A DNA stretch of 37,571 nt from positions 1-37,571 of the forward strand of contig DASYUT010000039.1 of NCBI GenBank assembly GCA_036000965.1, in the 5' to 3' direction. The translations under genes and the position numbers were made by a program. The notes under the pieces were generated by a model that did no database searches, was not told the origin of the DNA, and saw only the letters and a program-made list of their open reading frames with translations. Positions 977 through 29,739 of the stretch are shown here, piece after piece. The stretch is from Actinomycetes bacterium (GTDB taxonomy: Bacteria > Actinomycetota > CALGFH01). The number at the start of each line of letters is the position of its first letter. Position 1 is the first letter of the stretch.

Positions 977-1021
977 GTCCTCTTCGAGGACCTGTCTTCA
1001 AGAAGAAAAGGAGGTGAATGC
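977..1021 (+). promoter_or_regulatory. rpsD leader: two small hairpins and strong ribosome binding site
   Basis: GTCCTC-TTC-GAGGAC (977-991) forms a perfect 6-bp stem and CTTC-AA-GAAG (996-1005) a smaller one. They are followed by AAAAGGAGGTGA (1006-1017), nearly full complementarity to the 16S tail. This site decides the ATG at 1022 over the out-of-frame ATG at 1018. S4 autoregulates via leader structures in other bacteria; whether these hairpins do so here is unknown. Confidence 0.5.
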
Positions 1022-1627
1022 ATGAGCAGGACCAGGTCCAAGGTCCACCTGAGCCGCGCGCTGGGCATCCCGCTGACCCCAAAGGCGGTACGCCACCTGG
1101 AGCGGCGACCCTACCCGCCAGGCGAGCACGGCCGCAGGCGCAGGACCACATCCAACTACAAGGCACATCTGCTCGAGAAGCAGCGGCTTCGCGCCCAGTA
1201 CGACCTCAGCGAGGCGCAGCTGCGCCTGGCGCTTGCCCGGGCCGTACGAGGCGGTGAGAAGACCGGGGAGGCGCTGCTGGTCGATCTCGAGACCCGGCTG
1301 GACGCGCTGGTGCTGCGCGCCGGGTTCGCTCGGACGATCTACCAGGCGCGGCAGGCCGTGACGCACGGCCACGTCACGGTGAACACCCGCAGGGTGGACC
1401 GGCCGTCGTTCCGTGTGCGCCCTGGAGACGTCATCGAGATCGCAGCCGGCAGCAAGACCAAGACGCCGTTCCTGATCGCGGCGGCCGGCGAGCACGCCGC
1501 CACGGTCCCACCGTATCTCGACGTCGAGATCGAGGCGCTCAAGGCTCGGCTTGTCCGGCTCCCGGTACGGGCTGAGATCCCCGTCGTCTGCGACGAGCGG
1601 CTGGTCGTCGAGTTCTACTCCCGCTGA
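1022..1627 (+). CDS. rpsD: 30S ribosomal protein S4
   Basis: 201 residues, the normal length for S4. It binds 16S rRNA early in 30S assembly. The N-terminal part shows [20 protein letters not shown] and [11 protein letters not shown], and the S4 RNA-binding domain (residues about 90-150) shows [20 protein letters not shown] and VTHGHVTVN, ending with the family-typical [17 protein letters not shown]. The N terminus lacks the CxxC zinc-binding Cys residues of many bacterial S4 proteins, so it is the Cys-free form usual in Actinomycetota. The gene stands alone and not in the alpha operon with rpsM/rpsK/rpoA, as in Streptomyces. It ends in TGATAA, a double stop. Confidence 0.97.
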
Positions 1628-8575: not shown

Positions 8576-8723
8576 CGCACGCATCCTTTGCCGACCGCCC
8601 GGGCCGCCCGGAGCCTGCTCCCGTGCGCGTCGAAGGGGATCGCCATGTGGGTCTCGCCACCTTCCCTGCGCCCAGCCCTGCGCCCAGCCGTCCGTGACCA
8701 CCAACTCGAGAGGAGCGCAGCAG
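8530..8723 (+). promoter_or_regulatory. Cysteine-responsive translational attenuator (Cys codons pair with the ribosome binding site)
   Basis: CTGCTGCGC at 8530-8538, spanning the Cys codons of the leader, is the exact reverse complement of GCGCAGCAG at 8715-8723, which runs from the ribosome binding site to the first base of the GTG start of the next gene. After a 3-base bulge, TCCT (8542-8545) can pair with AGGA (8711-8714), the Shine-Dalgarno core: 13 pairs in all. CTGCGC at 8666-8671 and 8678-8683 can also pair with 8715-8720 and could be competing partners. Predicted logic: a ribosome stalled at Cys codons covers the left arm and frees the start site, so low cysteine turns the operon on. 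Confidence 0.65.
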
Positions 8724-10606: not shown

Positions 10607-11445
10607 TGCCCGTGCTCTCCGAGCCCGAGATCGCCGCGGCGGCCGCGCGGCTCGAGCAGCGGCCCGCCCACGAGGTCCTGGCCTGGGCGCTCGGCCGGTT
10701 CGGCGACCGGTTCGCGATCGTCACCTCCTTCCAGGTCGAGGGCATGGTCGTGCTCGACCTGGCCCGCCGGCTCGACCCGGCCGTCCGCGTGCTCACCCTG
10801 GACACCGGCCGGCTGCCGCAGGAGACCTACGACGTCATCGAGGCGGTCCGTGCCCGGTTCGACGTCAAGGTCGAGGTGGTCGCGCCCGACCCGGTGGCGG
10901 TCGCGGCGATGGTCACCCAGCACGGGCCCAACCTGTTCCGGCGCGACCAGGCGCTGCGCCGGCTCTGCTGCCAGGTGCGCAAGGTCGATCCGCTCGGCCG
11001 CGCGCTGGCCGGGCTCGACGCCTGGTCGACCGGGCTCCGCCGCGACGGCGCGTCCACCCGCGCGGGCACCGCCAAGGTCGAGCCCGACCCGGCCCACGGC
11101 GGCATCGTCAAGCTGAACCCGCTGGCCGACTGGACCCGCGACGAGGTGTGGGCGTATGCGCGCGCCAAGAGGGTGCCGATCCATCCGCTGTACGAGCAGG
11201 GCTATGCGAGCATCGGCTGCGCGCCGTGCACCCGGGCGGTGCTGTCCGGCGAAGACGAGCGGGCCGGCCGCTGGTGGTGGGAGGCAGGTCCGGACCGGGA
11301 GTGCGGCCTGCACCACGCCAGCCCGTCGGTGCGCTTCGACCTCGCCCTGGCCGAGCTGCGGGCGGACGTCGCCACGGGCGGGCGGCCCGACCGACGATCT
11401 CGAGGGGGTGAACGATGCGGTACCTCAGGAGCATCAGCGAGCTGA
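10606..11445 (+). CDS. cysH: Assimilatory APS reductase (4Fe-4S, thioredoxin-dependent type), 279 aa
   Basis: Reduces APS to sulfite. PP-loop motifs [14 protein letters not shown] and [15 protein letters not shown] bind the nucleotide. The paired CC ([13 protein letters not shown], near 123) and CxxC ([10 protein letters not shown], near 204) bind the 4Fe-4S cluster that marks use of APS over PAPS. The C-terminal ECGLHH (near 230) carries the catalytic Cys. Start ATG 10606 overlaps the stop of the previous gene (TGATG), with GGGAGG upstream, so translation is coupled. The 3' end runs 31 bases into the sulfite reductase gene, and the last 20 residues look unconserved. Note that the operon also makes PAPS, which this enzyme type does not prefer. 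Confidence 0.93.
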
Positions 11446-13049
11446 ACCAGGTCGAGAAGTGGAAGCTGGAGCGTCACCCGCTCGACGTGCGTGACGCGAT
11501 CCTCGATCGCTACGCCCGTGAGGGCCCCGAGGCGATCAAGGCCGTCCCCGGCGAGGTGGAGCGTCTGAAGTGGGTCGGCCTGTACCCCCAGCGCCAGGGC
11601 GGCGACGCGTTCATGCTGCGCATCAAGGTCCCTGGGGGACGCCTGACCGCCGCGCAGGCGCGGGTCGTCGGCGAGGTCGCCGACGAGTTCGCCCGGGGCC
11701 CGGCCCCGAACCCGGTGTTCGGCGACGCCTACCTGGACATCACCACCCGCCAGGACATCCAGCTCCACTGGGTCAGGATCGGCGCCGTCCCCGAGATCTG
11801 GCGCCGGCTGGAGGCGGTGGGCGTGACCACCGTGCAGGCGTGCGGCGACTCGGCCCGCAACGTGCTCTGCTGCCCGGTGTCGGGCCTGGACGCCGACGAG
11901 GTGCTCGACGCCTACCCGGTCGCCGCGGCGGTCTCCGCCTACTTCACCGGCAACCGCGAGTACGCCAACCTGCCCCGGAAGTTCAAGCTGAGCGTCACCG
12001 GCTGCCGGGAGGACTGCGCGCAGGCCGAGATCAACGACATCGGGCTGTGGCCGGCCCGGCTGGACGACGGCACCGTCGGCTTCAACGTGCTCGTCGGCGG
12101 TGGCCTGTCGGACGGCCCGCGCATGGCCTCCGACATCGACGTGTTCGTCCACCCCGACCCTGCTGGAGTGGTCGAGCTGTTCCGGGCCATCGCGCAGCTG
12201 TTCGGCGAGCTGGGCAACCGCGAGAACCGCGGGCTGGCCCGGATGCGCTACCTGGTGCAGGAGCTCGGCCCCGAGCGCTTCCGGGCCGAGCTGGCCGACC
12301 GGGCCGCCTTCCCGCTCGCCGCGGCGGGCGAGGCCCTCACCCGCCGCTACCGCGGCGACCACGTCGGCGTGCACGCCCAGAAGCAGCCCGGCCGCTGCTA
12401 CGTCGGCCTCAACGTGACCGTCGGCCGCATGGCCGGGCGGAACCTGGTCGAGGCGGCCCGCCTCGCCGGCGAGCACGGCGACGGCGAGCTGCGGCTGGCC
12501 ACCGACCAGAACCTGATCCTCACCGGCGTGCCCGAGGCGCGGCTCGGCGCGCTGCTGGCCGAGCCGCTGCTGGCCGAGCACTCCCCCGACCCGGGCGCGT
12601 TCGAGCGGGGGGTGGTGGCCTGCACCGGCAGCGAGTTCTGCCGCTTCGCGATCGTGGAGACCAAGGCGCGGGCCGCCCAGTGGGCTCGCGAGCTGGACCG
12701 CCGGCTGGGTCCCGACGAGACCGGCCAGGGCGTGATCCGCATGCACTTCTCGGGCTGCCCGGCCTCGTGTGCGCAGCCCCAGATCGCCGACATCGGCTTC
12801 CGCGGCGAGACCGCGCACCGCGGCGACACGATCGTCGAGGCGGTGGACGTCGGGCTCGGCGGGAGCCTCGGCACCGACGCGGCGTTCATCGACTTCGTCG
12901 AGGGGGCCAAGCCGGTGAGCGAGGTGCCCGACGCGCTGGTCGGCCTGCTCACCAGGTACCGCGCGGAGCGCCGCGACGGCGAGGCGTTCCACCAGTGGTG
13001 CCGGCGGCTGCCGAACACCGAGCTGCGAGCGATGCTGCGAGGAGACTGA
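11415..13049 (+). CDS. Siroheme / 4Fe-4S sulfite (or nitrite) reductase, 544 aa
   Basis: Six-electron reductase. The N-terminal part has ferredoxin-like repeats with LRIKVPGGRLTAAQARVVGE, YLDITTRQDIQLHW and CGDSARNVLCCPVSGLDADE. The cluster-siroheme ligands are visible as CTGSEFC near 402 and GCPASC near 448, i.e. C-x5-C-xn-C-x3-C. The family includes both nitrite (NirA) and sulfite (SirA) reductases, and CTGSEFC is close to NirA. The operon position directly after APS reductase argues for sulfite. There is no fused flavin or NADPH domain, so an electron donor protein is needed; the next gene, 5 bases on, is a good candidate. Ribosome binding site GAGGGGGTG, start ATG 11415. Confidence 0.9.
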   Translation: MRYLRSISELNQVEKWKLERHPLDVRDAILDRYAREGPEAIKAVPGEVERLKWVGLYPQRQGGDAFMLRIKVPGGRLTAAQARVVGEVADEFARGPAPNPVFGDAYLDITTRQDIQLHWVRIGAVPEIWRRLEAVGVTTVQACGDSARNVLCCPVSGLDADEVLDAYPVAAAVSAYFTGNREYANLPRKFKLSVTGCREDCAQAEINDIGLWPARLDDGTVGFNVLVGGGLSDGPRMASDIDVFVHPDPAGVVELFRAIAQLFGELGNRENRGLARMRYLVQELGPERFRAELADRAAFPLAAAGEALTRRYRGDHVGVHAQKQPGRCYVGLNVTVGRMAGRNLVEAARLAGEHGDGELRLATDQNLILTGVPEARLGALLAEPLLAEHSPDPGAFERGVVACTGSEFCRFAIVETKARAAQWARELDRRLGPDETGQGVIRMHFSGCPASCAQPQIADIGFRGETAHRGDTIVEAVDVGLGGSLGTDAAFIDFVEGAKPVSEVPDALVGLLTRYRAERRDGEAFHQWCRRLPNTELRAMLRGD

Positions 13050-13054
13050 CGCTG

Positions 13055-14326
13055 ATGGCCGGGTTCAAGATCCGCGACGAGATGAACGACATCGACGAGG
13101 CGCCTGGCAAGATCTGGTTCTGGGAGCTCGAGCAGGCCGTGATCGACGCCGACCGCTGCGTGCAGTGCGGGGCGTGCGTGGCGGCCTGCCCGAGCGACTC
13201 GATCGGGGTGGGCGCCGACGGCCTGCCCAAGCTGGTCAAGATGTGCACCGGCTGCTCGCTGTGCTGGGACTTCTGCCCCCGCGGCGGCATGCGCCACGAG
13301 GCCACCTGGGCGCTGCCCCCGGCCGGCGGGGACCCAGGGCCCGCTCCGGCGAACGGGTCCCCCGGTGGGGCCGGCGCGGGCGAGGCCGGCTGGAAGATCA
13401 CCGGTGCGCCCGGGCCGGCCGGCGCCGGGCTCGGCCGGGTGCGCGACACCTACACCGCCCGGGTGCGGCCGAAGGTGCCGGGGGCGCAGGACGGCGGGGT
13501 GGTCAGCGCGCTGCTGATCGCGCTGCTGGAGGCGGGCGACCTCGACGGGGCGCTGCTGGCCCGCGAGAGCCGGACCGAGCCGTGGAAGGGCGAGCCGTTC
13601 CTGGCCCGCACACCGGCCGAGGTCGTCGAGTGCGCCGGCAGCTTCTACAACCAGACCCTCGCGCTCGCCGCGCTGGACCTCGACGGCTACGACCTGCCCG
13701 CGCAGCCGCGCCTGGCGGTCGTGGGCACCCCGTGCGAGGTCGAGGCGATCCGCGCGATGCAGTCGCGGCCCTGGACGTGGGGCGCGTCGCGGGTGGACGC
13801 CGTGGTGCTCACGGTCGCGCTGCTGTGCACCAAGAGCTTCAACTACGAGAAGCTGATGGTGGACGAGATCCGGCGACGGCGTGGCATCCCGCTGGAGCGG
13901 GTGGGCAAGGTCGACGTGATCCATGGCCGGATGATCGTCGAGGACCACGACGGCGAGGTCCTGGTCTCCGAGCCGGTCCGCGACTTCCACGGCGCCGCGC
14001 TGAAGGGCTGCGACGAGTGCGCCGACTTCCTCGGGCACGCCGCAGACATCTCGGTCGGGAGCGTCGGCAGCGAGGACGGCTACTCCAGCGTGCTGGTGCG
14101 CACGCCGGCTGGCCAGGCCGCGTTCGACCGGGTCCGCGACCGCCTCGAGCTGCGCGACCTCGACCGGGTCGAGGCGCTGCACAAGCTCGACGCGCTCAAC
14201 AAGAAGATCGCCGTGCGCAGCCTGCAGCGACCGTTCGACCCGTCGGCGCCGCTCTTCGTCGACTTCGCCGAGCACGTGCAGCGCTACGCGGGGACCGACC
14301 GCGCGCCGGTGGTGCGCGACCGGTGA
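13055..14326 (+). CDS. FrhB-type F420-linked iron-sulfur flavoprotein, 423 aa
   Basis: Coenzyme F420 hydrogenase/dehydrogenase beta-subunit family (FrhB/FqoF/FpoF), which moves electrons between F420H2 and Fe-S clusters via flavin. Two ferredoxin motifs come first: CVQCGACVAACP (near 32) and CTGCSLCWDFCP (near 63). After a Gly/Pro/Ala linker (about 85-125) the FrhB N and C domains follow, with DGGVVSALLIALLEAGDLDG, VGTPCEVEAIRAMQ, and CDECADFLGHAADISVGSVG plus SEDGYSSVLVRT, all family hallmarks. It starts 5 bases after the reductase stop with GAGGAG upstream, and its stop overlaps the next GTG. The archaeal F420-dependent sulfite reductase Fsr has the same two modules in one chain, so I infer it feeds the upstream reductase. 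Confidence 0.87.
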   Translation: MAGFKIRDEMNDIDEAPGKIWFWELEQAVIDADRCVQCGACVAACPSDSIGVGADGLPKLVKMCTGCSLCWDFCPRGGMRHEATWALPPAGGDPGPAPANGSPGGAGAGEAGWKITGAPGPAGAGLGRVRDTYTARVRPKVPGAQDGGVVSALLIALLEAGDLDGALLARESRTEPWKGEPFLARTPAEVVECAGSFYNQTLALAALDLDGYDLPAQPRLAVVGTPCEVEAIRAMQSRPWTWGASRVDAVVLTVALLCTKSFNYEKLMVDEIRRRRGIPLERVGKVDVIHGRMIVEDHDGEVLVSEPVRDFHGAALKGCDECADFLGHAADISVGSVGSEDGYSSVLVRTPAGQAAFDRVRDRLELRDLDRVEALHKLDALNKKIAVRSLQRPFDPSAPLFVDFAEHVQRYAGTDRAPVVRDR

Positions 14327-14664
14327 AGCGGCCGCCGGACCCGACGGTCCCCGAGGAGCCGGCGGAGCTGCGCGCCCGCACCCGGGCCCTCGTCGAGGAG
14401 GCCCCCGACCGGGGAGCGGCGCTGGTGGACGCGGCGACGTGGATCGCCGACCCCCTCTGGGAGTGCTGGGGGCCGGCGCTCGAACCGGCCGGGATGGACC
14501 GGGAGCAGTTCCTCCGGGTCGTGGCCGGCTACCGCAGGGAGCTGTGGCTGTGGGTCGTGGGCGAGCGGACGTGGGCGCAGAGCGCAAGCGGGCTGCTCGG
14601 GCGGGTGCTGCGCCGCCTCCCCGGACCCGGAGGAACTGCTCCCGGTCCATCCCGGCCGCTGTGA
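14323..14664 (+). CDS. Unknown 113-aa protein at the end of the sulfur operon
   Basis: Starts at GTG 14323 in a GTGA overlap with the stop of the FrhB-type gene, the pattern of translational coupling, which is the main reason to accept it. It is mostly helical and acidic at the N terminus (VPEEPAELRARTRALVEEAP), with a Trp-rich middle (ATWIADPLWECWGPA), then YRRELWLWVVGERTWAQSAS and a basic tail. No Cys pair, signal or membrane segment is evident, and no family is recognised. By position it may be an accessory of the reductase pair. Confidence 0.65.
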   Translation: MKRPPDPTVPEEPAELRARTRALVEEAPDRGAALVDAATWIADPLWECWGPALEPAGMDREQFLRVVAGYRRELWLWVVGERTWAQSASGLLGRVLRRLPGPGGTAPGPSRPL

Positions 14665-15194: not shown

Positions 15195-15413
15195 TCATTC
15201 GGCCAGCCGCCGCCCGTCCGCCACGGCCCGCCGTAGGGCGTGCAGCCGGGCGCCGGGCCGCGTTTCACTCCAGCTCGGTCGTGCCCTCCGGGTAGAAGGC
15301 ACCCCAGGTGGGGGCGCCGGGCCGCGCTTCGCTTCCATCTCGGTCGTGCACTTGACGTCCGCACATAGCAGATGCCAATTGCATTCGCACTTGGCATGAT
15401 GGATGCTACTCAT
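15195..15413 (-). CDS. Possible Cys-rich small protein, 72 aa
   Basis: ATG 15413 with GGAG 8 bases upstream opens a frame beginning MSSIHHAKCECNWHLLCADV, with Cys at C-x-C-x5-C-x4-C spacing like a metal-binding knuckle; the rest is Pro/Arg-rich, with an internal duplication. The Cys-rich part lies in the 49-base repeat whose second copy (16319-16367) keeps the same frame except Glu to Gly. The gap 15086-15501 holds nothing else convincing. It may be a real small gene or chance coding in a repeat. Confidence 0.3.
   Translation of the reverse strand: MSSIHHAKCECNWHLLCADVKCTTEMEAKRGPAPPPGVPSTRRARPSWSETRPGARLHALRRAVADGRRLAE
15347..15395. repeat. 49-base direct repeat, copy 1
   Basis: Begins TGCACTTGACGTCCGCACAT and contains TGCCAA...TTGGCA, an inverted repeat. 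It matches 16319-16367 with one mismatch (T/C), in the same orientation 972 bases away, and weaker similarity continues on the right (GGATGCTAC...CATG). Confidence 0.95.
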
Positions 15414-16238: not shown

Positions 16239-16316
16239 GTCTTGTCGGGGATTTGCCGACCTTTGTCGGTCTTATCGTGGTTTGCCGACCTCCACTGTCT
16301 TGTCAGGGTTTGCCGG
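16239..16316. repeat. Three degenerate tandem repeats, about 29-base period
   Basis: GTCTTGTCGGGGATTTGCCG (16239), GTCTTATCGTGGTTTGCCGA (16269) and GTCTTGTCAGGGTTTGCCGG (16297). They lie just upstream of the DUF397 start in AT-richer sequence and run into the 49-base repeat copy 2. They could be operator sites for the missing XRE partner. Confidence 0.75.
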
Positions 16317-16318
16317 TC

Positions 16319-16367
16319 TGCACTTGACGTCCGCACATAGCAGATGCCAATTGCATCCGCACTTGGC
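16319..16367. repeat. 49-base direct repeat, copy 2
   Basis: Second copy of 15347-15395, same orientation, one mismatch. It ends about 57 bases from the stop of the MoeA fusion gene. Confidence 0.95.
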
Positions 16368-16423
16368 GTCGGGATGCTACCGCATGTTGCAATGGAAAGC
16401 TGCGCGACCGACCGCGACGGCGC

Positions 16424-18334
16424 TCAGCGGATCCTGCGGCCCATCTCCTCGACCGCGTAGCCGCCGAGCGCGGCCACGGCGGCCTGGAAGTCGGCCGACT
16501 GCAGCAGCGCCCAGAACGGGGCGAGGACGGGATCGTCGAGGGCGTCGAGACCCAGGACGAGGTCGTAGGGCTCGCGCGCGACCGGGATGAAGCCGAGCCC
16601 GAAGGCGCGGGCGGCAGCCAGGATGCCCAGCCCGCAGTCGGCGCGGCCGGCGGCGATGGCGGCGGCCACGGCCAGGTGGGTGTACTCCTCGCGGGCGTAG
16701 CCGGCGACGGCGTCGGGGCTGATGCCCCGGGTCCGGAGCTCGTGGTCGAGCAGGACGCGGGTGCCCGCACCACGCTGGCGGTTGACGTAGCGCAGCCCCG
16801 GGCGGGTCAGGTCGTCGATGCCGCCAAGGCCGAGAGGGTTGCCGTGCGCGACGATCAGGCCCTGGTCGCGGTGCACGAGGCGGACCACCGCGACGTCGCG
16901 GCCGGCCAGCACCCGGTCGACGTAGGGCAGCGTGTACTGGCCCGTGGCCGGGTCCAGCAGGTGCGAGCCGGCGAGGTGGCACAGCCCGTCGCGGAGCGCG
17001 ACCAGCCCGCCGAGCGAACCCACGTTGGAGGACGCGAGCGTGATGCGCGGGTCCGCGCCACGCAGGGCCGAGGCGGCCAGGTCGAGCACCAGGTCGTGCG
17101 AGCCGATGGCGACGATGGTGCGCTCGATCTCGTCGAGGCCGCGGAGGAGCGCGACGTCGACATCCTCGCCCGCGTGGTGCCCCTCCAGAGCGGCCGGGAC
17201 GACGAGCAGCCCGTCGGCGCGGACCAGTGAGGTCAGCACCCCGGCGCCGCGGGGCAGCGGCGTGGCCACGATCCTCCCGCCCACCCGGCCCAGGCGTACC
17301 CGCACCCAGTCGTCCATCCCCACGACCGACGCGAGCTTGCGGGCCAGCCGCGCCCGGGTCGACGGGCGGCGCTGCGGCGCGGCGCCGGCGATCTCGGCGA
17401 GCAGCGGTGCGGCGAAGATGTCGAACGTCAGCGCCGCGGACACCGGGTAGCCGGGGCAGCCGAGGACCGGTGTGCGGTCCAGCGCGCCCAGCACGACCGG
17501 GTGCCCCGGGCGCACCGCCACCCCGTGGACGGCCAGGGTGCCGAGGTCGGCGACGACCCGTGCGGTGTAGTCGTCGCGCCCCGCGCTGGAGCCGGCGACG
17601 ATGATCAGCAGGTCGCAGTCGGTGGCCGCGGTGCGCGCGGCCTGGGCGATGCGCTGGGGGTCGTCGGGCTCGATCGGCAGGCGGTACGCGTCACAGCCGA
17701 TCTCGCGGGCCTGGGCGGCGAGCATCAGCGAGTTGGTGTCCAGGATCTCCGCGGGCCCGGTCGGCGACCCGATGGGGCGCACCTCGTCGCCGGTGGGCAG
17801 CACGGCGACGACGGGGCGGCGGCGCACCAGGAGCTCGGTGGCGCCGGCGGCGGCCGCGGCGGCGACGTCGACCGCGCGCAGCCGGTGCCCCTCGGGCAGC
17901 AGGAGCTCGGCCGTGCTCACGTCCTCGCCGATCGAGCGCACGTGCTGGTAGGGGGGGACGGCGGCGCGGAGCTCGGCGACGCCGCCGGCATGGTGCACGT
18001 GCTCGCGCATGACGACCGCGTCGCGGCCGTCGGGCAGCGGGTCCCCGGTGTCCACCACGTCGTAGGCGGCCGGCTCGAGGTGGACGGGCGTGGTCTCGCT
18101 AGCGCCGAGCGTGTCGGCTGCGCACACGGCGATCCCGTCCATGGCCGCGGCGTCGAAGGGCGGCGAGGAGCGGGTGGCCCACACCGGGGCCGCGGTGACC
18201 AGGCCGACCGCGTCCTCCAGCCCTACCCGCACGCTGTCGACCCGCGCCGGGCAGCCCGCGGCCGCGCACGCGCGGCGCCAGGCGTCCAGGGCCTGCTCGG
18301 CCGGCAGGTCGCGGATGAACGGGCTGGTGGACAT
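16424..18334 (-). CDS. MoeA fused to a periplasmic-binding-like domain, 636 aa
   Basis: Residues 1 to about 400 are MoeA, which inserts molybdate or tungstate into adenylylated pterin: MDGIAVCAADTLG, DTGDPLPDGRDAVVM, VLPTGDEVRPIG, VAGSSAGRDDYTARV and LGCPGYPVSAALTFD. Residues about 420-630 are a type-2 periplasmic-binding-like domain without signal peptide (SHDLVLDLAAS, ASSNVGSLGGLVALRDGLCH, RYVNRQRGAGTRVLLDHELR, REPYDLVLG), the COG1910 module known fused to MoeA, perhaps a cytosolic oxyanion sensor or carrier. The start is chosen at ATG 18334; ATG 18355 and 18379 lie in a 22-base duplication (18336-18379) and add low-complexity residues. No good ribosome binding site is seen. Last gene of the FDH operon, about 100 bases after the first moeA. 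Confidence 0.9.
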   Translation of the reverse strand: MSTSPFIRDLPAEQALDAWRRACAAAGCPARVDSVRVGLEDAVGLVTAAPVWATRSSPPFDAAAMDGIAVCAADTLGASETTPVHLEPAAYDVVDTGDPLPDGRDAVVMREHVHHAGGVAELRAAVPPYQHVRSIGEDVSTAELLLPEGHRLRAVDVAAAAAAGATELLVRRRPVVAVLPTGDEVRPIGSPTGPAEILDTNSLMLAAQAREIGCDAYRLPIEPDDPQRIAQAARTAATDCDLLIIVAGSSAGRDDYTARVVADLGTLAVHGVAVRPGHPVVLGALDRTPVLGCPGYPVSAALTFDIFAAPLLAEIAGAAPQRRPSTRARLARKLASVVGMDDWVRVRLGRVGGRIVATPLPRGAGVLTSLVRADGLLVVPAALEGHHAGEDVDVALLRGLDEIERTIVAIGSHDLVLDLAASALRGADPRITLASSNVGSLGGLVALRDGLCHLAGSHLLDPATGQYTLPYVDRVLAGRDVAVVRLVHRDQGLIVAHGNPLGLGGIDDLTRPGLRYVNRQRGAGTRVLLDHELRTRGISPDAVAGYAREEYTHLAVAAAIAAGRADCGLGILAAARAFGLGFIPVAREPYDLVLGLDALDDPVLAPFWALLQSADFQAAVAALGGYAVEEMGRRIR

Positions 18335-18335
18335 C

Positions 18336-18379
18336 GACGGCCACGGTACCGGCATCTGACGGCCACGGTACCGGGGCAT
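18336..18379. repeat. 22-base tandem duplication at the start of the MoeA fusion gene
   Basis: GACGGCCACGGTACCGG occurs at 18336 and 18358, each followed by a GCAT, so each copy brings an in-frame ATG on the minus strand. This makes the true start ambiguous by 7 or 15 residues. Confidence 0.8.
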
Positions 18380-18435
18380 CGACGGCCTGTCGGAACCCGC
18401 TGCACGCCAAGACCACCCTGTTGCGCGGCGGGCCC

Positions 18436-19668
18436 TCACCGGTACAGCGTGACCTCGACCTCGGTGCCGGCGGGAAGGCCGGTGGCCTCCTCGGGCACGA
18501 CCAGGTAGCCGTCCGCCGCGACCAGGATCGACAGCAGCGCCGACAGCCCGAACAGCGGGCTGGCGGCGCCGTCGCACAGGCGCACCTGGACGACGTCGAG
18601 GCGGCCGGCGGCCGACGCCAGGTCGCGCTCCAGGGTGGCGCGGGTCACGGGCTCCGACGGCACCCACACCCCGGCGCCCCCGACCCGCCACACCAGGGGG
18701 ACACCCACCAGGCGGAACACCACCAGCGCCGACAGCGGGTTGCCGGGCAGACCGAGGACGGGCACGCCGCCGCACTCGGCGAGCAGCGTTGGCTTGCCCG
18801 GGCGCAGCGCCAGGCCGTGGCACCAGATGCCGGGCTCGCCGAGGCCGGCCACGGCGGCGGCGGTCTGGTCGCGGGCACCGACCGACGAGCCAGCGGAGAC
18901 CACGACGAGGTCGCTGTCCCCCAGGGCGGCACGCATGGCTTCGCGCAGCTTGCCAGCGTCGTCGGGGACGATCCCGCCCGCGTGTGGCTCGCCGCCCGAC
19001 TGCCGTACCAGTGCAGCGAGCGCCGACGTGGTGGCGTCACGGACCTGTCCGGGACGCAAGCTGCGCTGTGCGGGCGGCACGACCTCGTCGCCGGTGGACA
19101 GGATCGTCACCCGCGGGCGGGCGTGCACGCCGATGGTCGTGACACCGGCGGCCGCGAGCATCCCGAGGTCCTGGGCCCGGAGCGGGCGGCCGGCAGGCAC
19201 CAGCTCGGCGCCCCGCGCGGCGTCCTCGTCGGCGCGTACCAGCCCGTCACCGGGGGCGACCGGGCGGACCACCTCGATCATGCCTGGCATCGTCTCCTGG
19301 GTGTACTCGACCATCACCACGGCGTCGGCGCCCGGCGGCAGGACCCCCCCGGTGGGCATGCCGACCGCGGTGCCCGGCGCCACGGCGACCTCTGCTGCTG
19401 CGCCCATCGGCACCGACCCGGCGAGCTGCAGGTAGCCGGGCAGCCCCTCGGAGGCCCCGTAGGTGTCGGCGGCGCGCACGGCGTAGCCGTCGACCGTGGC
19501 CCGTGCAAACCCGGGCAGGGCCGCCGGCGCGCGGACCGCCTCGGCCGGGACCCGGTGCAGGGCGTCGTCCAGCTCGACCGGCTCGGGTGCGGTTCGCCGC
19601 CCGGGGCGGAAGCCGGCCAGCGCCTCGGCCACGGTACGGGTAGCGAAGAACTCCTTGCTACGGCTCAT
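18436..19668 (-). CDS. moeA: Molybdopterin molybdotransferase MoeA, 410 aa
   Basis: Last step of Mo/W-pterin assembly. Motifs in order: ATVDGYAVRAADTYG (near 58), GMPTGGVLPPGADAVVM (near 100), TILSTGDEVVPPAQ (near 190), VSAGSSVGARDQTAAA (near 255) and LGLPGNPLSALVVF (near 300), then the C-terminal domain IV. Usual MoeA length. ATG 19668 chosen; an upstream ATG at 19722 adds 18 residues, and neither has a clear Shine-Dalgarno. It follows fdhB by 57 bases, and a second, diverged MoeA follows it. Two MoeA paralogues in one organism have been linked to Mo versus W choice in archaea. Confidence 0.93.
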   Translation of the reverse strand: MSRSKEFFATRTVAEALAGFRPGRRTAPEPVELDDALHRVPAEAVRAPAALPGFARATVDGYAVRAADTYGASEGLPGYLQLAGSVPMGAAAEVAVAPGTAVGMPTGGVLPPGADAVVMVEYTQETMPGMIEVVRPVAPGDGLVRADEDAARGAELVPAGRPLRAQDLGMLAAAGVTTIGVHARPRVTILSTGDEVVPPAQRSLRPGQVRDATTSALAALVRQSGGEPHAGGIVPDDAGKLREAMRAALGDSDLVVVSAGSSVGARDQTAAAVAGLGEPGIWCHGLALRPGKPTLLAECGGVPVLGLPGNPLSALVVFRLVGVPLVWRVGGAGVWVPSEPVTRATLERDLASAAGRLDVVQVRLCDGAASPLFGLSALLSILVAADGYLVVPEEATGLPAGTEVEVTLYR

Positions 19669-19725
19669 CTGATGGATGTCCTGGACGCCATGGCTGGGGT
19701 GATCGGCGGATCCATCGAGCAAGCC

Positions 19726-21458
<1,733 letters not shown>

Positions 21459-21459
<1 letters not shown>

Positions 21460-24329
21460 CAGCGGGCCTCGGTCGGCACGGCGTCGATCCGGACGGCGCA
21501 GAACTTGTACTCCGGGATCTTGGCGTACGGGTCGATCTCGTCGATGGTCAGCAGGTTGGCCGCCGCCTCCCGGAAGTGGAACGGGATGAAGCAGTTGCCG
21601 GGCGCCTCGATGTGGGAGACGCGCAGCCGCAGCACGATCGAGCCGCGCCGGGAGCTCACGCGCACGTCGTCGCCGTCGCTCAGCCCGAGCGCGGCGGCGT
21701 CGTCGGGGTGCAGGTACACCTCGGCGCGGGGCTGGATCGCGTCCAGCGCGTAGGACCGGCGCGTCATCGAGCCGGTGTGCCAGTGCTCGAGCAGCCTGCC
21801 GGTGTTGAGCACCAGCGGGTACCGGGCGTCGGGCAGCTCCTTGGCCGGCAGCCACTCCGCGGGCACCAGGTGGGCCAGCCCGTCGCTGGTGTTGAACCGC
21901 TCGCCGAACATCACCACGGTGCCGTCGCTGTGCTCGGGGTCGGGATTGGGGTACAGCTTGCCGGACAGGCCGAGGTTGTCGTAGCGCAGGTTCGCGTAGC
22001 TCGGCATCACCGACACCATCTCGTCGAAGATCGCCTGGGGCGAGGCGTAGGCCCACTCCAGCCCGACGCGGTTGGCGAGGTCCTGCACCACCTCCCAGTC
22101 GACGCGCGCCTCCCCGGGCGGGTCCAGCGTCTTGCGCCCCAGCTGCACGCGGCGGTCGGTGTTGGTGTAGGTGCCGTCCTTCTCGAGGTAGGACGACGCG
22201 GGCAGGACGACGTCGGCGAACTCGGCCGTCTCGGTCAGGAAGATGTCCTGCACGACCAGGAACTCGAGTGCCTGCAGCCCCTTGCGGACCTTGTTGATGT
22301 TCGGGTCGGACAGGAACGGGTTCTCACCCATCATGTACATGCCGCGCACGCCGCCGGTCAACGCCGACTTGATGATCTCGGTGACCGTCAGCCCCCGCGC
22401 CGGGTCCAGGTCGGTGCCCCACAGCCGCTCGAACTTCGCGTGGACCTCGGGGTCGTCCACCCGCTGGTAGTCGGGGTAGAACATCGGGATCAGCCCGGAG
22501 TCCGAGGCGCCCTGCACGTTGTTCTGCCCCCGGAGCGGGTGCAGCCCGCTGCCGGGCTTGCCGACGTTGCCGGTGATGGCGCACATGGCGATCAGGCAGC
22601 GGGCGTTGTCGGTGCCGGTGGTGTGCTGCGAGATGCCCATGCCCCAGAAGATGATCCCGGCCCCGGCCTCCCCCCACACCCGTGCGACCCGCCGGATGAC
22701 GTCGGCGTCCACCCCACTGATCTGGGCCGCCCGCTCGGGCGGGTAGTCGGCGACCGTCCGCTCCAGGGCCTCGAAGTTGGAGGTGCGCCGCTCGACGAAC
22801 TCGCGGTCGACCAGCCCGAGCCGGATCACCTCGTGCATGATGCCGTTGTAGAAGGCGACGTCGGTGCCCGGCTTGATCTGGCAGTAGATGTCGGCGTGCT
22901 CACGGACCTTGCTGGCCCGGGGGTCGACGTAGATCAGCGTGGTCCCGCGCCGGCGCGCCTGCTTGAAGAACGACGAGGCCACCGGGTGGTTGGCGGTCGG
23001 GTTGCTGCCGGCCACGATGACGACGTCGGCGTTGACGACGTCGCCGTAGGTGGTGGACACCGCCCCGGAGCCGATCCCCTCGAACAGCGCGGCGACGCTC
23101 GAGGCATGGCACAGCCGCGTGCAGTGGTCGACGTTGTTGGTGTGGAAGGCGGTGCGGAGCAGCTTCTGGAAGAGGTAGGCCTCCTCGTTGGAGCACTTGG
23201 CCGACCCGAAGCCGGCGATCGCGCCGGGGCCGTGCGCGGCGTGGATCTCGGTCAGCCTCCTCGCGACCAGGTCCAGCGCCTCCTCCCAGGTGGCCTCCCG
23301 GAAGTGCGGCAGCACCTCGTCGTAGTCGACCAGCCCCCCGGGCTTGCGCCGGCGGTCGCGGCGTCCGCCGCCACCGCCGTTGTCGTCGCCGCGGACGTCG
23401 GCGGAAAGGGGTCCCTTGGGGTAGGCCGCGTCGCGGCGGATGAGCGGGGTGACCAGCCGCTGCGGCGAGGCGGCGTAGTCGAAGCCGTAGCGGCCCTTCA
23501 CGCACAGGCGGCCCTTGGAGCCGGGCTGGTCGCGCCCGTCGGCGAAGGAGATCGCGCCGCGCTCGCGGTCCACGTAGTAGGTCAGCGCGCACCCCACCCC
23601 GCAGTACGGGCAGACGGTGTCGACCGCGTCAAGCTCGCTGCGCGGGCGGATCGGCACGCCCCGGATCGGCTTGTTGGTCAGCGCGCCGGTGGGGCAGGCG
23701 GCCACGCACTCGCCGCAGGTGACACACGACGACGAGCCCATCGGGTCGTCGAGGTCGAAGGCGATCCTGGTGGCGTAGCCCTTGCCGCTGCGCCCGATGA
23801 CGTCGTTGCCCTGGATGTCGTCGCAGGCGCGCACGCAGCGGTCGCAGAGGATGCAGGCGTCGTGGTTGACCGCGATGACGGGGTTGGAGAGGTCCTCGCC
23901 GCGGCCGGAGGCGACCGGCAGCCCGTCGCCCCGCTGCACGCCGTACCGTGCCGCCAGTGCGAGCAGCGCGTTGTCGCCGGTGCTGGTCTGCTTCGGGTCG
24001 CGCTCGGGCGGCGGCTGGTCGGACAGCAGCAGCTCGGTGAGGGTGGCGCGGTGGCGCTCCAGGTCCGGGGTGGTGGTCTTGACCTCCATCCCGGGCTCGC
24101 AGGGCCGCACGCACGAGGCCGCGTAGACCCGCCCGCCGACGTCGACCACGCACATGCGGCAGACGCCGACCGGGTCGTAGCGCTCGTCGTGGCAGAGGAC
24201 GGGGATGTCGACGCCGGTGTCGCGCGCCGCGGTCCAGATCGTCGTCCCTTCCGGGACCGTGACCTCGCGGCCGTCGATCGTGAGGGTGACCGTGCGCGTC
24301 GGGGTGGGGGCTGGCATCGTCGCAGTCAT
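21459..24329 (-). CDS. fdhA: Formate dehydrogenase alpha subunit, NuoG-like, Cys type, 956 aa
   Basis: Oxidises formate to CO2 at a bis-pterin Mo or W centre. N terminus: NuoG-type 2Fe-2S domain (PVLCHDERYDPVGVCRMCVV, near 40), a His/Cys 4Fe-4S segment, two ferredoxin 4Fe-4S motifs (CILCDRCVRACDDIQGND near 155; CVTCGECVAACPTGAL near 200), then CPYCGVGC (near 235), the cluster of the catalytic domain. The catalytic residue in NVDHCTRLCHASSV is Cys (near 407), not selenocysteine. The C-terminal pterin-binding domain follows (LEHWHTGSMTRRS). A Gly/Arg-rich insert lies near 310. ATG 24329 overlaps the AOR stop by four bases (ATGA). No FdhD or Mo/W transporter gene is in the window. Confidence 0.94.
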
Positions 24330-26218
24330 CGAGACCAGTCTTTCGCTTCGGCCCCTTCGCTGTCGAGGAGCAGATCTTCCAGCGCGAGCTCGTCGGGACG
24401 CCCTCCCGCGTCCAGGCCCCGGGCGGCGTAGTAGCCGTCCACCATCGACCGGAGGCGCTCGGCGGTCAGCGTGGCGACCCGGCCAGAGCCGACCTCCAGC
24501 GGCTCGTCCAGCAGGCGCCGGGGAAGCCAGTCGTCCCCCGGCGTCCAGCCCTCGCGGAGGTTGAACATGCGCTTGGCAAGCACGATCCGCCGTGCCGTGC
24601 GCCGCAGCTCGGCGGCGTCGGTGTCCCAGCCGGTCACCGCCCGCAGCAGCGCCGCCCACTCGTCGTAGGGGTTGCCCTGGTCGAACACGCCGCGCAGGAA
24701 CTTGCAGAGGATCAGCGAGTCCATGACCGCCGCGCGGTCCTCGGTGGCCACGGCCGCGGCCACGTGCGCCTGGCCGCCCGCGAGGCGGTCGAGGCTCCCC
24801 GACAGGTCGGCCTCGTAGGCGCCCGAGCGGTTGTGGTCGGCGCCGCGCGCGTTGACCGCAAGCCCCAGCGCCATGGCGTGCAGCGTGCGCGGCTCGTAGC
24901 CGGGCAGCTCCAGTCCCTTGACGTGCAACGCCAGACCGGCCGCTGCGCCGCCCAGCCGCTCGGCGGCGCGGCGCGAGCCCTCGGCGAGCAGGGCGCCCAG
25001 CCCCTCCCGGGCCCCGACCTCGTCCAGCGCCCGGAGCAGGGCGGCGCCGTCGCCGAACCGCAGCCAGGGCGCGTCGATCAGGCCCCGCTCGGCGCACTCC
25101 ATCGCCCAGGCGATCGTGCCCCCGGCCGAGATCGTGTCGAGCCCCAGCTCGTCGCAGCGCGCGCTGGCGGCCAGCACGGCGTCGGGGTCCGACACGCCGC
25201 ACATCGGTCCCAGTGCGAACACGTTCTCGTACTCCACCCGCACCTTGGCCCCGCTGCGGGCGGCGTAGATGTGCTCGCAGCCGATCGTGCAGGACGCGCA
25301 GCTGTTGCGGGCGACGCGGCGCAGCCCGGACAGGTCCTCGGCGGCCAGGCGCGGGGCCTCGGCGAAGGTGGCGGCCTGGAAGTTGCGGGTCGGCAGCGTG
25401 CTGATGGCGTTGAAGGCGAGCAGGTTGGCCAGCGTGCCCAGCTCGCGGTACTTGGCGGTGGCCGGACCGAAGGAGCGCGCCCGGAGGTCCCGGGCCGCGC
25501 CGAGCACGGCCTCCGGGTCCGCGACCGGGACCGCGCCCGCGCCGCCCGCCCGCCCGGCGCCGCTTGCCCGCCCGGCGCCGCTTGCCCGCACCGCGCCGCC
25601 GGCCCGCACCGCAACGGCCTTCAGGCGCTTGGCCCCCATGACCGCGCCCAGCCCGCCCCGCCCGGCGTGCCGGCCGTCGTGCGACACCGTGGCGTAGCGG
25701 ACGCCGCGCTCACCGGCCGGCCCGATCGCGGCGACCCGCCAGCCCCGGCCCAGCCGCTGCCGCAGCAGCGTCTCCGCCTCGGCGGCTGGACGCCCCCATG
25801 CCTGGCCGGCGTCGACCAGCCGCGCGCCGTCGCCGTCGACGAGCAGCACCGAGGGCGTGTCGCAGGCCCCCCGCACGACGATCGCGTCGTGGCCGGTGAG
25901 CTTGCCGGCGATCGCGAACTGGCTCGACGCCAGCGCGTCGTTGAGCATGCCGGTGAGCGGCGACTTCGCCACGACGGCAAACTTCGCGCTGGTGGTCAGC
26001 GGTGTGCCGACCAGCGGGGAGAACACGAACGCCAGCGGCGCCTCCGGCCCGAGCGGGTCGGCCCGCGGGGGCGCCAGCCGGTGCAGGAGCCAGGTGCCGA
26101 GCCCGGCGCCGCCGATGTAGGCCCGCAGGACCGGCTCTGGGAGCGGCAGCACGGAGGCGCAGGCCCCCGACAGGTCGACGACCAGGGCGCGCCCGAGATA
26201 TCCGCCAGGAACGGCCAT
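24326..26218 (-). CDS. aor: Aldehyde:ferredoxin oxidoreductase (tungsten enzyme family), 630 aa
   Basis: Oxidises aldehydes to acids, or the reverse, at a W-bispterin centre. Domain 1: GGYLGRALVVDLS, RAYIGGAGLGTWLLHRL, VFSPLVGTPLTTSAKFAVVA and KSPLTGMLNDALASSQFA. The 4Fe-4S ligands are CASCTIGC near 307 and a Cys in LILCKFLRG near 504. Other hallmarks are EYENVFALGPMCGVSDPDAV, ELGLDTISAGGTIAWAMECA, VKGLELPGYEPRTLHAMAL and ARGADHNRSGAYE. A Gly/Ala/Arg repeat insert lies near 200. Start ATG 26218 with AGGAGG inside the end of mobA. No ferredoxin-like AorA gene accompanies it; it is coupled by ATGA to fdhA. Confidence 0.93.
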   Translation of the reverse strand: MAVPGGYLGRALVVDLSGACASVLPLPEPVLRAYIGGAGLGTWLLHRLAPPRADPLGPEAPLAFVFSPLVGTPLTTSAKFAVVAKSPLTGMLNDALASSQFAIAGKLTGHDAIVVRGACDTPSVLLVDGDGARLVDAGQAWGRPAAEAETLLRQRLGRGWRVAAIGPAGERGVRYATVSHDGRHAGRGGLGAVMGAKRLKAVAVRAGGAVRASGAGRASGAGRAGGAGAVPVADPEAVLGAARDLRARSFGPATAKYRELGTLANLLAFNAISTLPTRNFQAATFAEAPRLAAEDLSGLRRVARNSCASCTIGCEHIYAARSGAKVRVEYENVFALGPMCGVSDPDAVLAASARCDELGLDTISAGGTIAWAMECAERGLIDAPWLRFGDGAALLRALDEVGAREGLGALLAEGSRRAAERLGGAAAGLALHVKGLELPGYEPRTLHAMALGLAVNARGADHNRSGAYEADLSGSLDRLAGGQAHVAAAVATEDRAAVMDSLILCKFLRGVFDQGNPYDEWAALLRAVTGWDTDAAELRRTARRIVLAKRMFNLREGWTPGDDWLPRRLLDEPLEVGSGRVATLTAERLRSMVDGYYAARGLDAGGRPDELALEDLLLDSEGAEAKDWSR

Positions 26219-26222
26219 CCGC

Positions 26223-27065
26223 CTAGCCTCCTGCATCCGCGGCCAGGAAGGCCACGGTATCACCGGCTACCAGGGGCAGCTCGCCGTCCCGGGTGATCTG
26301 GTCGCCGTTCAGCGCGGCGACCACGTGCCGGTCGAGGGTGAGCCCGGCCGCCGCGGCGGCGCCGGCCAGGGTGGCCGCCCGGACCGTCCGCGGCCCGCGC
26401 TGGCCCGCGACGGCCAGCACCCCGTACCGCCGCACCGTCACCTCTGGGGCCGGCCGGGCCCGGGCGGCCTCGTACTCGGCCGGGTCGTTGACGTTGACCA
26501 CCGAGGCCAGCTCGGGGTCGAGCCTGGCCAGCACCGGATCGGCCAGCAGGGCTGCCTCGTCCAGGCGCACGACCGCGTGGTCGCGCAGCAGGAAGGCCGG
26601 GCGGAGCTGCCCGTCCGCGACCAGCCTGGCGACGTCGGGTGCCAGCGTGGTGCGGTAGGCGGCCGCCAGCGGCTGCGGGAAGCCCAGCGCGACGGGGAGC
26701 GCGATCTCGACGCCGCCGTCGAGCGCCCGCAGCACGCGGCGGACGAACGCGGGGTGCAGGAAGGGCAGGTCGGTGGAGCAGACGAACGCCGCCTCGGCCC
26801 GGCTGGCCGTCGCGGCCAGGCCCGCGGCCAGCCCCTGGAGGGGCCCCAGCCCCTCGCGCGGGTCCTCGACCAGCTCCACCTCCGGGCCCAGCTCGGGCAG
26901 GGCCTGCCCGGGGGCCCGGACGACCACCACCGGCCCGTCCACCATGCGACCGACCAGCCCGGTGACCCGCCGCAGCAGCGTGGAGCCGTGCCATTCCAGC
27001 GCCGCCTTGGCCGTGCCCATGCGCGAGGACCGCCCGCCCGCGAGCACGATCCCTGTGCTGGTCAT
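26223..27065 (-). CDS. MobA-MoaD fusion: Mo-cofactor guanylyltransferase with ubiquitin-like sulfur carrier, 280 aa
   Basis: Residues 1 to about 200 are MobA, which adds GMP to Mo/W-pterin: LAGGRSSRMGTAKAAL (8-23), EGLGPLQGLAAGLAA, FVCSTDLPFLHPAFV (near 95) and VNVNDPAEYEAA. Residues about 208-280 are a beta-grasp MoaD/ThiS-like domain (VTVRRYGVLAVAGQRG ... AALNGDQITRDGELPLVAGD) that ends exactly in Gly-Gly, as needed for thiocarboxylation. Both belong to the same pathway, and bis-MGD made by MobA is the cofactor of formate dehydrogenases. First gene of the operon; GGGGCAGGG precedes ATG 27065. The stop is 4 bases from the AOR start. The fusion is unusual. Confidence 0.88.
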   Translation of the reverse strand: MTSTGIVLAGGRSSRMGTAKAALEWHGSTLLRRVTGLVGRMVDGPVVVVRAPGQALPELGPEVELVEDPREGLGPLQGLAAGLAATASRAEAAFVCSTDLPFLHPAFVRRVLRALDGGVEIALPVALGFPQPLAAAYRTTLAPDVARLVADGQLRPAFLLRDHAVVRLDEAALLADPVLARLDPELASVVNVNDPAEYEAARARPAPEVTVRRYGVLAVAGQRGPRTVRAATLAGAAAAAGLTLDRHVVAALNGDQITRDGELPLVAGDTVAFLAADAGG

Positions 27066-27334: not shown

Positions 27335-27979
27335 TCAGGCTCGTAGGAACGCGAGGACGGCGAGGACGCGGCGGTGGTCGTCGGGGGTTACCGGCAGGTC
27401 CAGGCGGGTGAAGATGCTGCGGACGTGGGCCTCCACGGTCTTCGGGCTGAGGAACAGCCGCTCGCAGATGGCCTGGTTCGAACGCCCCTCGGCCATGAGC
27501 GCGAGCACCTCCCGCTCCCGCTCGGTCAGCTCCTCGACCGGGTTGCGGGCCCGTCGCCGGCCGACGAGCTGCGCGACCACCTCCGGGTCGATCACCGACC
27601 CGCCCGCGGCGACGCGGCGGACCGCGTCGGTCACGTCGGCGACGTCGGCGACGCGGTCCTTGAGCAGGTAGCCGACGCCACCGGCGCCGTCCGCGAGGAG
27701 CTGCATGGCGTGGTGGGTCTCGACGTACTGCGACAGCACCAGCACCCCCACCCCCGGGTGCGCGGCGCGGATGCGTTGGGCGGCGTCGAGGCCCTCGCGG
27801 GTGTGGGTCGGGGGCATGCGGATGTCCACCACGACCGCGTCGGGCGGGTCGGCGCGCACCCGGGCAAGGAGCTGCTCGGCGTCGCCGACCTGGGCGGCGA
27901 CCCGGATGCCCGCCGCCTCGAGGACTCGCGCCAGCCCCGCACGAAAGAGCACGGCGTCGTCGGCGATCACGACGCGCAC
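27335..27979 (-). CDS. NarL/LuxR-family response regulator, 214 aa
   Basis: DNA-binding half of a two-component system. Receiver domain 1-120 with acidic pair near 7-8 ([10 protein letters not shown]), phospho-acceptor Asp in VVVDIRMPP near 52, and Lys in [10 protein letters not shown] near 107. LuxR helix-turn-helix at about 150-200: [20 protein letters not shown] and [20 protein letters not shown]. The start is GTG 27979, overlapping the end of the kinase gene by 13 bases. Last gene of a kinase/regulator operon; likely target is the divergent ABC transporter or the FDH operon on its other side. Confidence 0.92.
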
Positions 27980-29739
27980 GGGAGCACCGCCGTGATGCAG
28001 GTGCCCTGCCCAGCAGGGCTGTGGACGTGCAGGCGGCCGTCGAGGACGGCGACGCGGTCGGCCAGGCCGCGCAGGCCCGAACCGTCCGGGTCGGCGCCGC
28101 CGGTGCCGTCGTCGCCGACCTCGACGACGAGGTCGCCACCGCGCCGCCGGGCGCTGATCGTGACGGCGGTGGCGCGGGCGTGCTTGGCGGCGTTGGCGAG
28201 CGCCTCGGACGCGACGTAGTAGGCGGTCTCCTCGACGCGGGGTGGGAGCCGCTCGGAGACGACCGGGGCGAGGGTGACGGGGATGGGGGAGCGCTCGGCC
28301 AGTGCTGCCAGCGCGGGCCCGAGGCCCGCCTCGCTGAGGATCACCGGGTGAATGCCGCGGGCCAGCTCGCGCAGCTCGGCGAGCGCGCGCCGCAGCTCGG
28401 CGGCGGCCTCGTCGAGGGCTGCGGCGAGTTCCTCGTCGCCGGCGGTCCCGACCTGCGACCGGGCGATTCCGAGGGCGAGCGAGACGTTGACCAGGCGCTG
28501 CTGGGCGCCGTCGTGGAGGTTGCGCTCGACGCGGCGGCGCTCGGCATCGCCGAACTCGACGATGCGGGCGCGCGAGGCGCGCACCTCCTCGAGCTGGGCG
28601 CGGACCTCGGCGTGGAGGCGCTGGTTCTCGATGGTCATGCGGGCGGTCGCCGCGACGGCCTGGACCAGCGCGGGATCGTCGTCGAGGGCGGCGTGGTGGA
28701 GCAGGGCGGCGACCGGGTCGCCACCCTGGCGCAGGATGGTGACGGCGCGGTCGTCACCGGCGGCCGGGAGCTCGACCGGGTGTCCCGCAGCGTCGACGAA
28801 GGCGTGCCGGTCGGGCAGCCAGTAGGCGAGGGTCAGGGTGGGGTCGTGGAGGGCGCGGGCGAGGGCCTGCTCGAGCCGGCCGGGCGGCAGGGCCTTGCTA
28901 AGCTCGATGGCGAGGCCGCCGACTGCCGAGTGATCCAGCCGGGTCCGCGCCAGTCCGGCCAGGAACGCCAGCGGCCACAGCAGCAGCAGCATGAGGATCG
29001 TCAGGTTGAACCCGATCTCGATCGGCGACGGTGGGCTGGACATCACCACCATGAGTGCCTGCCCGATCAGGTAGACGACCACCAGCACGACCCCGACCAG
29101 CACGACCGGGGCGAGGCTGCGCCGCCGCGGTTCGGGCGCCCGGTGCCAGCGGGAGATCACGATCCAGAGCAGCAGCCCGGCCAGCACCACGAGGACCAGG
29201 TTCGAGACCGCGAGCACCGCTTCACCGTACGGATGGCGGCCGCCCAGCGCCAGGAGGTCGTCCGGGCACTCGGCGCAGCCCAGCGAGGCCGGGTCCACCA
29301 GCAGCAACTGGGCCAGGGCCAGGGGCACCGTGGCTGCGTAGTTGGCGACGACGAACAGCCGTTGCAGCCGGGTGGTCGCCCGGCCGTCTGGGTAGACGGC
29401 GATCAGGTGGGCGAGGACGGCTTCCGGCAGCGTTGCCACCAGGAACCAGAGCGCGAACCCGAGCGGCGCGCGGACGAGGGTCACGCCGTTCAAGAGCAGG
29501 CCGTTCAACAAGTAGGCCAGCCCGACCGTGACCATGAGCGCACCTGTGCGGTTGTCGGGCCGGCGCGACCAGGCGACCAGGCCGGCCGCCGCGAACGACC
29601 AGCTCACCCCGATGATCGCGACCAGCAGGTAGGCGAGCGGCCCGGGCCGGTCCTCGCCGGCCCGTAGCAGCAACGCGAGGTCGACCAGCCCCGCGGCCAG
29701 GGCGGTGAGGGCGAGCGCGAGGCGCAGCCGCTGGCTCAT
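27967..29739 (-). CDS. NarL-type sensor histidine kinase with membrane N terminus, 590 aa
   Basis: The N-terminal third has about seven hydrophobic helices ([60 protein letters not shown] and others), so it is a membrane sensor. A GAF-like region follows (about 300-385), then a coiled linker. The HisKA_3 dimerisation box is [20 protein letters not shown] with the phospho-His near 406, and the HATPase domain shows [21 protein letters not shown] and [18 protein letters not shown] 29739 follows the stop of the receiver protein by one base. Signal unknown; a CAEC pair lies in an external loop. Confidence 0.9.

What the first reader, a model, noticed from the sequence alone, without database searches (positions are those of the whole stretch)
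16424..27065. Formate/aldehyde oxidation operon with its own pterin-cofactor genes
Six genes on one strand with overlaps or short gaps: MobA-MoaD, AOR, FDH alpha, FDH beta, MoeA, MoeA-PBP. AOR is a tungsten enzyme family that is rare in actinobacteria, and it is coupled by ATGA to FDH. Formate and aldehyde oxidation feeding NAD+ plus dedicated cofactor insertion looks like a self-contained Mo/W module.
Basis: partly seen in the sequence, partly recalled or inferred. Interest (0 to 1): 0.68.

Follow-up and report, generated by a model that had tools for sequence, protein, structure and literature searches.

The report
Actinobacterial tungsten-enzyme operon
Six neighbouring genes, conserved in the same order across many mostly air-living soil actinobacteria, look like a kit for making two tungsten enzymes that oxidise aldehydes and formate, a metal use usually linked to microbes that live without oxygen.

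Summary
In detail: six minus-strand genes at 27065-16424 encode a MobA-WorX (MoaD/ThiS-like) fusion, an aldehyde oxidoreductase (AOR), formate dehydrogenase FdhA, FdhB (fused NuoE-NuoF), MoeA and MoeA-PBP. In relatives with enough flanking DNA, 56 of 62 keep all six in this order on one strand. Linkage is real, but "rare in actinobacteria" is not: 165 matching stretches were found and 80 examined. The best reading is a tungsten module. FdhAB is closest to the tungsten FDH1 of Methylorubrum extorquens; tupAB and/or a GntR-PBP regulator lie beside the operon in 22 relatives and on another contig here; 33 of 37 isolates with the operon have TupA, against 1 of 15 AOR-less genomes. FdhB supports NAD+ reduction from formate. 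Nothing supports it for AOR, which lacks the usual small subunit and persists in 8 relatives where FDH is broken or not adjacent; ferredoxin is its likelier acceptor. The parts are known; their assembly (MobA-WorX fusion, AOR coupled to FDH, in mainly aerobic lineages) was not found described in the papers searched. Metal, substrates and co-transcription are inferred. Unexplained: no FdhD gene in this genome or in three isolates with intact FDH genes.

The parts
26223..27065 (-). mobA-worX: MobA-like guanylyltransferase (about residues 1-200) fused to a MoaD/ThiS-like sulfur-carrier domain ending in Gly-Gly
   Evidence: Pfam NTP_transf_3; ThiS in 28 of 30 relatives; AlphaFold pLDDT 93, MobA fold; C-terminal domain matches MoaD structures, best Foldseek E 1.4e-3; Gly-Gly end in 75 of 75
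24326..26218 (-). AOR (WorL), 630 aa, tungsten-family aldehyde oxidoreductase, no small subunit gene beside it
   Evidence: AFOR_N and AFOR_C; closest solved structure 1aor; cluster cysteines C307, C310, C314, C505 and T262, Y441, H462 in 79 of 79, E331 in 74 of 79
21459..24329 (-). fdhA, 956 aa, formate dehydrogenase alpha with NuoG-like Fe-S N-terminus and cysteine (not selenocysteine) active site
   Evidence: TIGR01591 equivalog over cut-off; closest solved structure 7vw6/7e5z, M. extorquens W-FDH; HCTRLCH motif in 66 of 66
19726..21459 (-). fdhB, 577 aa, fused NuoE-NuoF type subunit with FMN/NADH domain
   Evidence: 2Fe-2S_thioredx, Complex1_51K, NADH_4Fe-4S; closest solved structure 7e5z_B
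18436..19668 (-). moeA, 410 aa, archaeal-like metal insertase
   Evidence: MoeA_N, MoCF_biosynth, MoeA_C; best solved match is an archaeal MoeA, 1uz5
16424..18334 (-). moeA-PBP, 636 aa, metal insertase fused to a periplasmic-binding-protein-like domain, proposed tungstate insertase
   Evidence: MoeA domains plus PBP_like; PRK14498 equivalog 679 bits over 534

Best explanation
This is a tungsten-enzyme module of mainly aerobic Actinobacteria. TupABC, encoded elsewhere in this genome and probably controlled by a GntR regulator with a PBP domain, imports tungstate. The WorX domain of the MobA-WorX fusion carries sulfur for pyranopterin synthesis. MoeA-PBP, with the paired MoeA, captures tungstate and inserts it. 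The MobA domain adds GMP to make W-bis-MGD for FDH, while AOR takes the form without nucleotide. FdhAB oxidises formate to CO2 and reduces NAD+. AOR oxidises an aldehyde to its acid and passes electrons to a ferredoxin; if the aldehyde is formaldehyde, the two enzymes form one path to CO2. Shown: gene content, order, domains, active-site residues and conservation. Supported by association: tungsten use. Inferred: metal identity, substrates, ferredoxin as acceptor, regulator function and co-transcription.
For: Six genes in order in 56 of 62 relatives. FdhAB closest to the tungsten FDH1 of M. extorquens. AOR family with intact cluster and second-shell residues. tupAB and/or GntR-PBP regulator beside the operon in 22 relatives and on contig C81 here. 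TupA in 33 of 37 operon-bearing isolates, 1 of 15 AOR-less genomes. MoeA-PBP linked to TupA in a published survey (PMC11733289). A separate MoeA with moaC elsewhere in this genome leaves the operon MoeAs free to be dedicated. ThiS-like WorX upstream of AOR in distant relatives.
Against: No metal data. Residues tied to tungsten choice in M. extorquens MoeA1 are absent from both MoeAs. 4 of 37 isolates and most MAGs tested lack TupA. TupA and TupB of this genome score below the NCBIfam equivalog cut-offs. No FdhD in this genome. Controls for TupA were few and from other lineages. Aerobic life of the window's own organism was not tested.
Confidence: 0.7

Rival explanations
1. AOR and FdhAB form one complex: AOR passes electrons through the Fe-S domains of FdhA to FdhB, so that aldehyde and formate oxidation both reduce NAD+.
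For: Fixed order AOR-fdhA-fdhB with a 4-nt overlap here; no small Fe-S subunit or ferredoxin gene beside AOR in this clade; a NuoF-like chain occurs in the same solved entry as an AOR (9mqx).
Against: AOR and mobA-worX are kept in 8 relatives where FDH is broken or not adjacent, in several separate places of the AOR tree. FdhA is of ordinary length with no extra domain.
Confidence: 0.12
2. The two enzymes serve unrelated reactions and are together only because they share tungsten cofactor supply.
For: FDH is lost from the locus more than once while AOR stays; the cofactor genes are what the two enzymes visibly share.
Against: The unchanged order in 56 of 62 loci suggests a closer link than a shared cofactor, though this does not exclude it. 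Overlaps the best explanation, in which the C1 path is only a possibility.
Confidence: 0.4
3. A molybdenum module: the same genes work with Mo, and tungsten plays no part.
For: MoeA keeps the Lys and Ser of Mo insertases; E. coli YdhV of the AOR family takes Mo (PMC13328260); four isolates with the operon have no TupA.
Against: TupA in 33 of 37 isolates and tup genes beside the operon in 19 relatives; W-FDH-type FdhAB; MoeA-PBP tied to TupA.
Confidence: 0.15

Closest known systems
Class I tungsten oxidoreductases with WorX, e.g. P. furiosus AOR and Brevibacillus massiliensis BmWOR (PMC13328260, PMC9424855)
   Same: Single large subunit with one 4Fe-4S cluster, no WorS gene beside it, a ThiS-like WorX gene next to AOR; BmWOR also comes from an aerobe
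   Different: Here WorX is fused to MobA and the AOR gene is followed by formate dehydrogenase and two moeA genes
Tungsten formate dehydrogenase FDH1 of Methylorubrum extorquens (7e5z, 7vw6; PMC13197769)
   Same: Two subunits, NuoG-like N-terminus on FdhA, fused NuoE-NuoF FdhB, cysteine active site, best match of both subunits
   Different: Linked to AOR; insertases are the archaeal-like MoeA plus MoeA-PBP pair without the R291/A312 residues; FdhD missing in some genomes
MoeA1 (MoeA-PBP) and MoeA2 pair of Archaea and some anaerobic bacteria, co-occurring with TupA (PMC11733289)
   Same: Adjacent MoeA and MoeA-PBP genes, TupA association, proposed tungsten insertion
   Different: That survey names anaerobic or facultative bacteria for the pair; here it is in mainly aerobic actinobacteria in a fixed enzyme operon
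AorABC(DE) of Aromatoleum aromaticum (PMC6365974)
   Same: Tungsten AOR with MoaD-like genes in the operon
   Different: That enzyme has AorA (Fe-S) and AorC (FAD, NAD) subunits; neither gene is in this operon

Membership tests
AOR / WOR family | AFOR N- and C-terminal domains with four cluster cysteines | tested here: met
AOR / WOR family | Second-shell Thr, Glu, Tyr, His of AOR sensu stricto (PMC12096430) | tested here: met
   T262, Y441, H462 in 79 of 79; E331 in 74 of 79, Gln in 5
Class I WOR | No WorS, WorN or bifurcating subunit genes with WorL | tested here: met
   None beside AOR in the 80 loci; genes encoded elsewhere not excluded
Class I WOR | Ferredoxin as electron acceptor | not testable with these tools
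   needs assay
AOR / WOR family | Tungsten in the active site | not testable with these tools
   only indirect: TupA association
M. extorquens FDH1-type W-FDH | FdhA plus NuoE-NuoF fused FdhB, cysteine ligand, RGQNNVQG motif | tested here: met
M. extorquens FDH1-type W-FDH | FdhD sulfurtransferase available in the genome | tested here: not met
   No PF02634 match in this genome or in L017, L030, L049; present in most other operon-bearing isolates; draft assemblies
M. extorquens MoeA1-type tungstate insertase | Arg and Ala at positions 291 and 312 | tested here: not met
   Lys or His and Ser instead
MoeA-PBP (archaeal MoeA1 type) | MoeA domains I-IV plus C-terminal PBP_like domain, TupA in the genome | tested here: met
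WorX / MoaD-ThiS sulfur carriers | Beta-grasp fold with C-terminal Gly-Gly | tested here: met
   fold match is modest (best Foldseek E 1.4e-3)
WorX / MoaD-ThiS sulfur carriers | Thiocarboxylate formation and sulfur transfer | not testable with these tools
   needs assay

The most novel reading that the evidence does not exclude
AOR, FdhA and FdhB assemble into one NAD+-reducing complex, a WOR type outside the five published classes, in which an aldehyde oxidase uses the Fe-S wire and flavin site of a formate dehydrogenase and could oxidise formaldehyde stepwise to CO2.
Probability: 0.1. Interest if true: 0.75.

Novelty: new variant of a known kind. Interest (0 to 1): 0.5.

Why it matters
Tungsten enzymes are usually tied to anaerobes; [quoted passage not shown] A conserved AOR-FDH-cofactor operon in Pseudonocardia, Nonomuraea, Amycolatopsis, Kribbella and others suggests that tungsten use is widespread in soil actinobacteria, and it can be tested in culturable type strains. 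It also offers a natural gene set for making W-FDH, of interest for CO2 reduction, and the FdhD-less genomes raise the question of how their FDH is sulfurated.

Tried and rejected
Riboswitch control (Moco/Tuco RNA): no Rfam hit in the window or the tup contig. Sigma-70 promoters and terminators: none above chance, uninformative in high-GC DNA. Metal specificity read from MoeA residues: M. extorquens markers absent. A chance run of genes: rejected by conserved order. AOR rare in actinobacteria: rejected. Sampling by genus, family and class gave only 1-3 genomes. L026 was dropped from the list of FdhD-less genomes with intact FDH because its FdhB match is split between two frames. A fold search with the whole MobA-WorX model returned only MobA-like and related nucleotidyltransferase folds, so the C-terminal domain was modelled alone. 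Literature searches found no paper describing this operon; subscription papers and preprints are not in that library, so absence there is not proof of novelty.

Full report
Observation. The six genes are present at the stated coordinates on the minus strand. Junctions from first to last are +4, -4 (ATGA), -1 (TGATG), +57 and +101 nt. The MoaD part of the first protein is weak in this one sequence but is confirmed in 28 of 30 relatives, by a predicted fold matching MoaD and by a Gly-Gly end in all 75 C-termini listed. PMC13328260 calls the ThiS-like protein beside class I WORs WorX, so I call the gene mobA-worX.

Distribution. A scan of one genome per species gave 215 pattern-matched stretches, 165 encoding a relative of the AOR, of which the best 80 were kept. 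Named hosts include Pseudonocardia, Nonomuraea, Amycolatopsis, Kibdelosporangium, Herbidospora, Actinophytocola, Kribbella, Nocardioides, Geodermatophilus and Streptomyces, which I know as aerobes, plus many MAGs. Of 62 loci with enough DNA, 56 keep all six genes in order on one strand and 6 have no FDH beside AOR; 18 further loci end too early but are consistent. Two of the 56 (L016, L018) have broken FDH genes. In an even draw of 396 phylum genomes 87 have an AOR-family match, but only this genome and three others have close orthologues at 72-84% identity. The six proteins' pairwise distances correlate at 0.92-0.97 over 41 loci, as expected for a unit inherited together, though shared species history alone would give much the same.

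The enzymes. The AOR keeps the four cluster cysteines and, with few exceptions, the second-shell Thr, Glu, Tyr and His named in PMC12096430. Its closest solved structure is P. furiosus AOR. FdhAB is closest to the tungsten-containing FDH1 of M. extorquens, clearly so for FdhA, with active-site motifs conserved in relatives. FdhB carries the NADH/FMN domain, so NAD+ is the likely acceptor for formate.

Tungsten. MoeA-PBP has been linked to TupA and tungsten before: 86% co-occurrence, 28% in the same locus (PMC11733289). Here tupA or tupB sits beside the operon in 19 relatives and a GntR-PBP regulator in 15, one or both in 22 loci. This genome carries the same regulator-tupABC cluster on contig C81. 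Its regulator matches GntR plus PBP_like, the same domain as in MoeA-PBP; its TupA and TupB match the tungstate models but below their equivalog cut-offs. Of 37 isolate genomes with the operon 33 have TupA; of 15 AOR-less phylum genomes one does. Most MAGs tested have none, which may be incompleteness, and the AOR-less genomes come from other lineages. The M. extorquens tungsten-pocket residues are absent, so selectivity, if real, has another basis, perhaps the PBP domain.

Electron acceptor of AOR. AOR relatives in other actinobacterial lineages (about 37-43% identity by BLAST) include loci with a WorS-like Fe-S gene beside AOR and a stand-alone ThiS-like gene directly upstream (L137, L140). 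In this clade the small subunit gene is missing and WorX is fused to MobA. FDH is broken or not adjacent in 8 relatives while AOR and mobA-worX stay. L013, L050, the Frankiales group and L082 lie in separate places in the AOR tree, which was built by a quick method with some weak branches. So AOR does not need FdhAB everywhere, and a ferredoxin is the likelier acceptor, as in other class I WORs (PMC13328260). A shared complex is not excluded.

Open problem. No FdhD was found in this genome, nor in isolates L017, L030 and L049 with intact FDH genes. FdhD is required for M. extorquens FDH1 (PMC13197769). Assembly gaps, another sulfurtransferase or an inactive FDH are all possible. FdhD lies beside the operon in five Pseudonocardia loci.

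Verdict. A real, conserved operon, best read as a tungsten module in mainly aerobic actinobacteria. Every part belongs to a known family; the assembly is a new variant. Metal, substrates, electron acceptor of AOR and co-transcription are inferred.

Noticed in passing
own genome; L017, L030, L049: No FdhD-family gene (PF02634) although the operon's FDH genes are intact; FdhD is present in most other operon-bearing isolates. Draft assemblies, so absence is not proven.
   Followed up: partly
L081:11408-12388, L070:10991-11971, L075:3071-4054: In Frankiales-group loci without FDH a selD-like gene (AIRS domains checked in L081) lies downstream of AOR, directly after it in L081; L081 also has a selA-like gene upstream.
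   Followed up: no
MoeA-PBP, window 16424-18334: His replaces the Lys of the PGKP motif (PGHP) in all 40 family members scored; the paired MoeA has Lys in 54 of 58.
   Followed up: partly
window 8576-14326, + strand: APS kinase-ATP sulfurylase fusion, nitrite/sulfite reductase and an FrhB/FdhB-like Fe-S protein: probably sulfate assimilation.
   Followed up: partly
window 27338-29724, - strand: LuxR-type response regulator and histidine kinase just upstream of mobA-worX on the same strand; relatives have other upstream genes, so probably not part of the operon.
   Followed up: partly
window 14486-14520 / 14624-14658 and 15341-15409 / 16314-16380: A perfect 35-nt inverted repeat and a 69-nt 91% direct repeat in the region downstream of the operon.
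   Followed up: no
window 863-1627, + strand: ORF that reads like a ribosomal protein S4; not checked against families.
   Followed up: no
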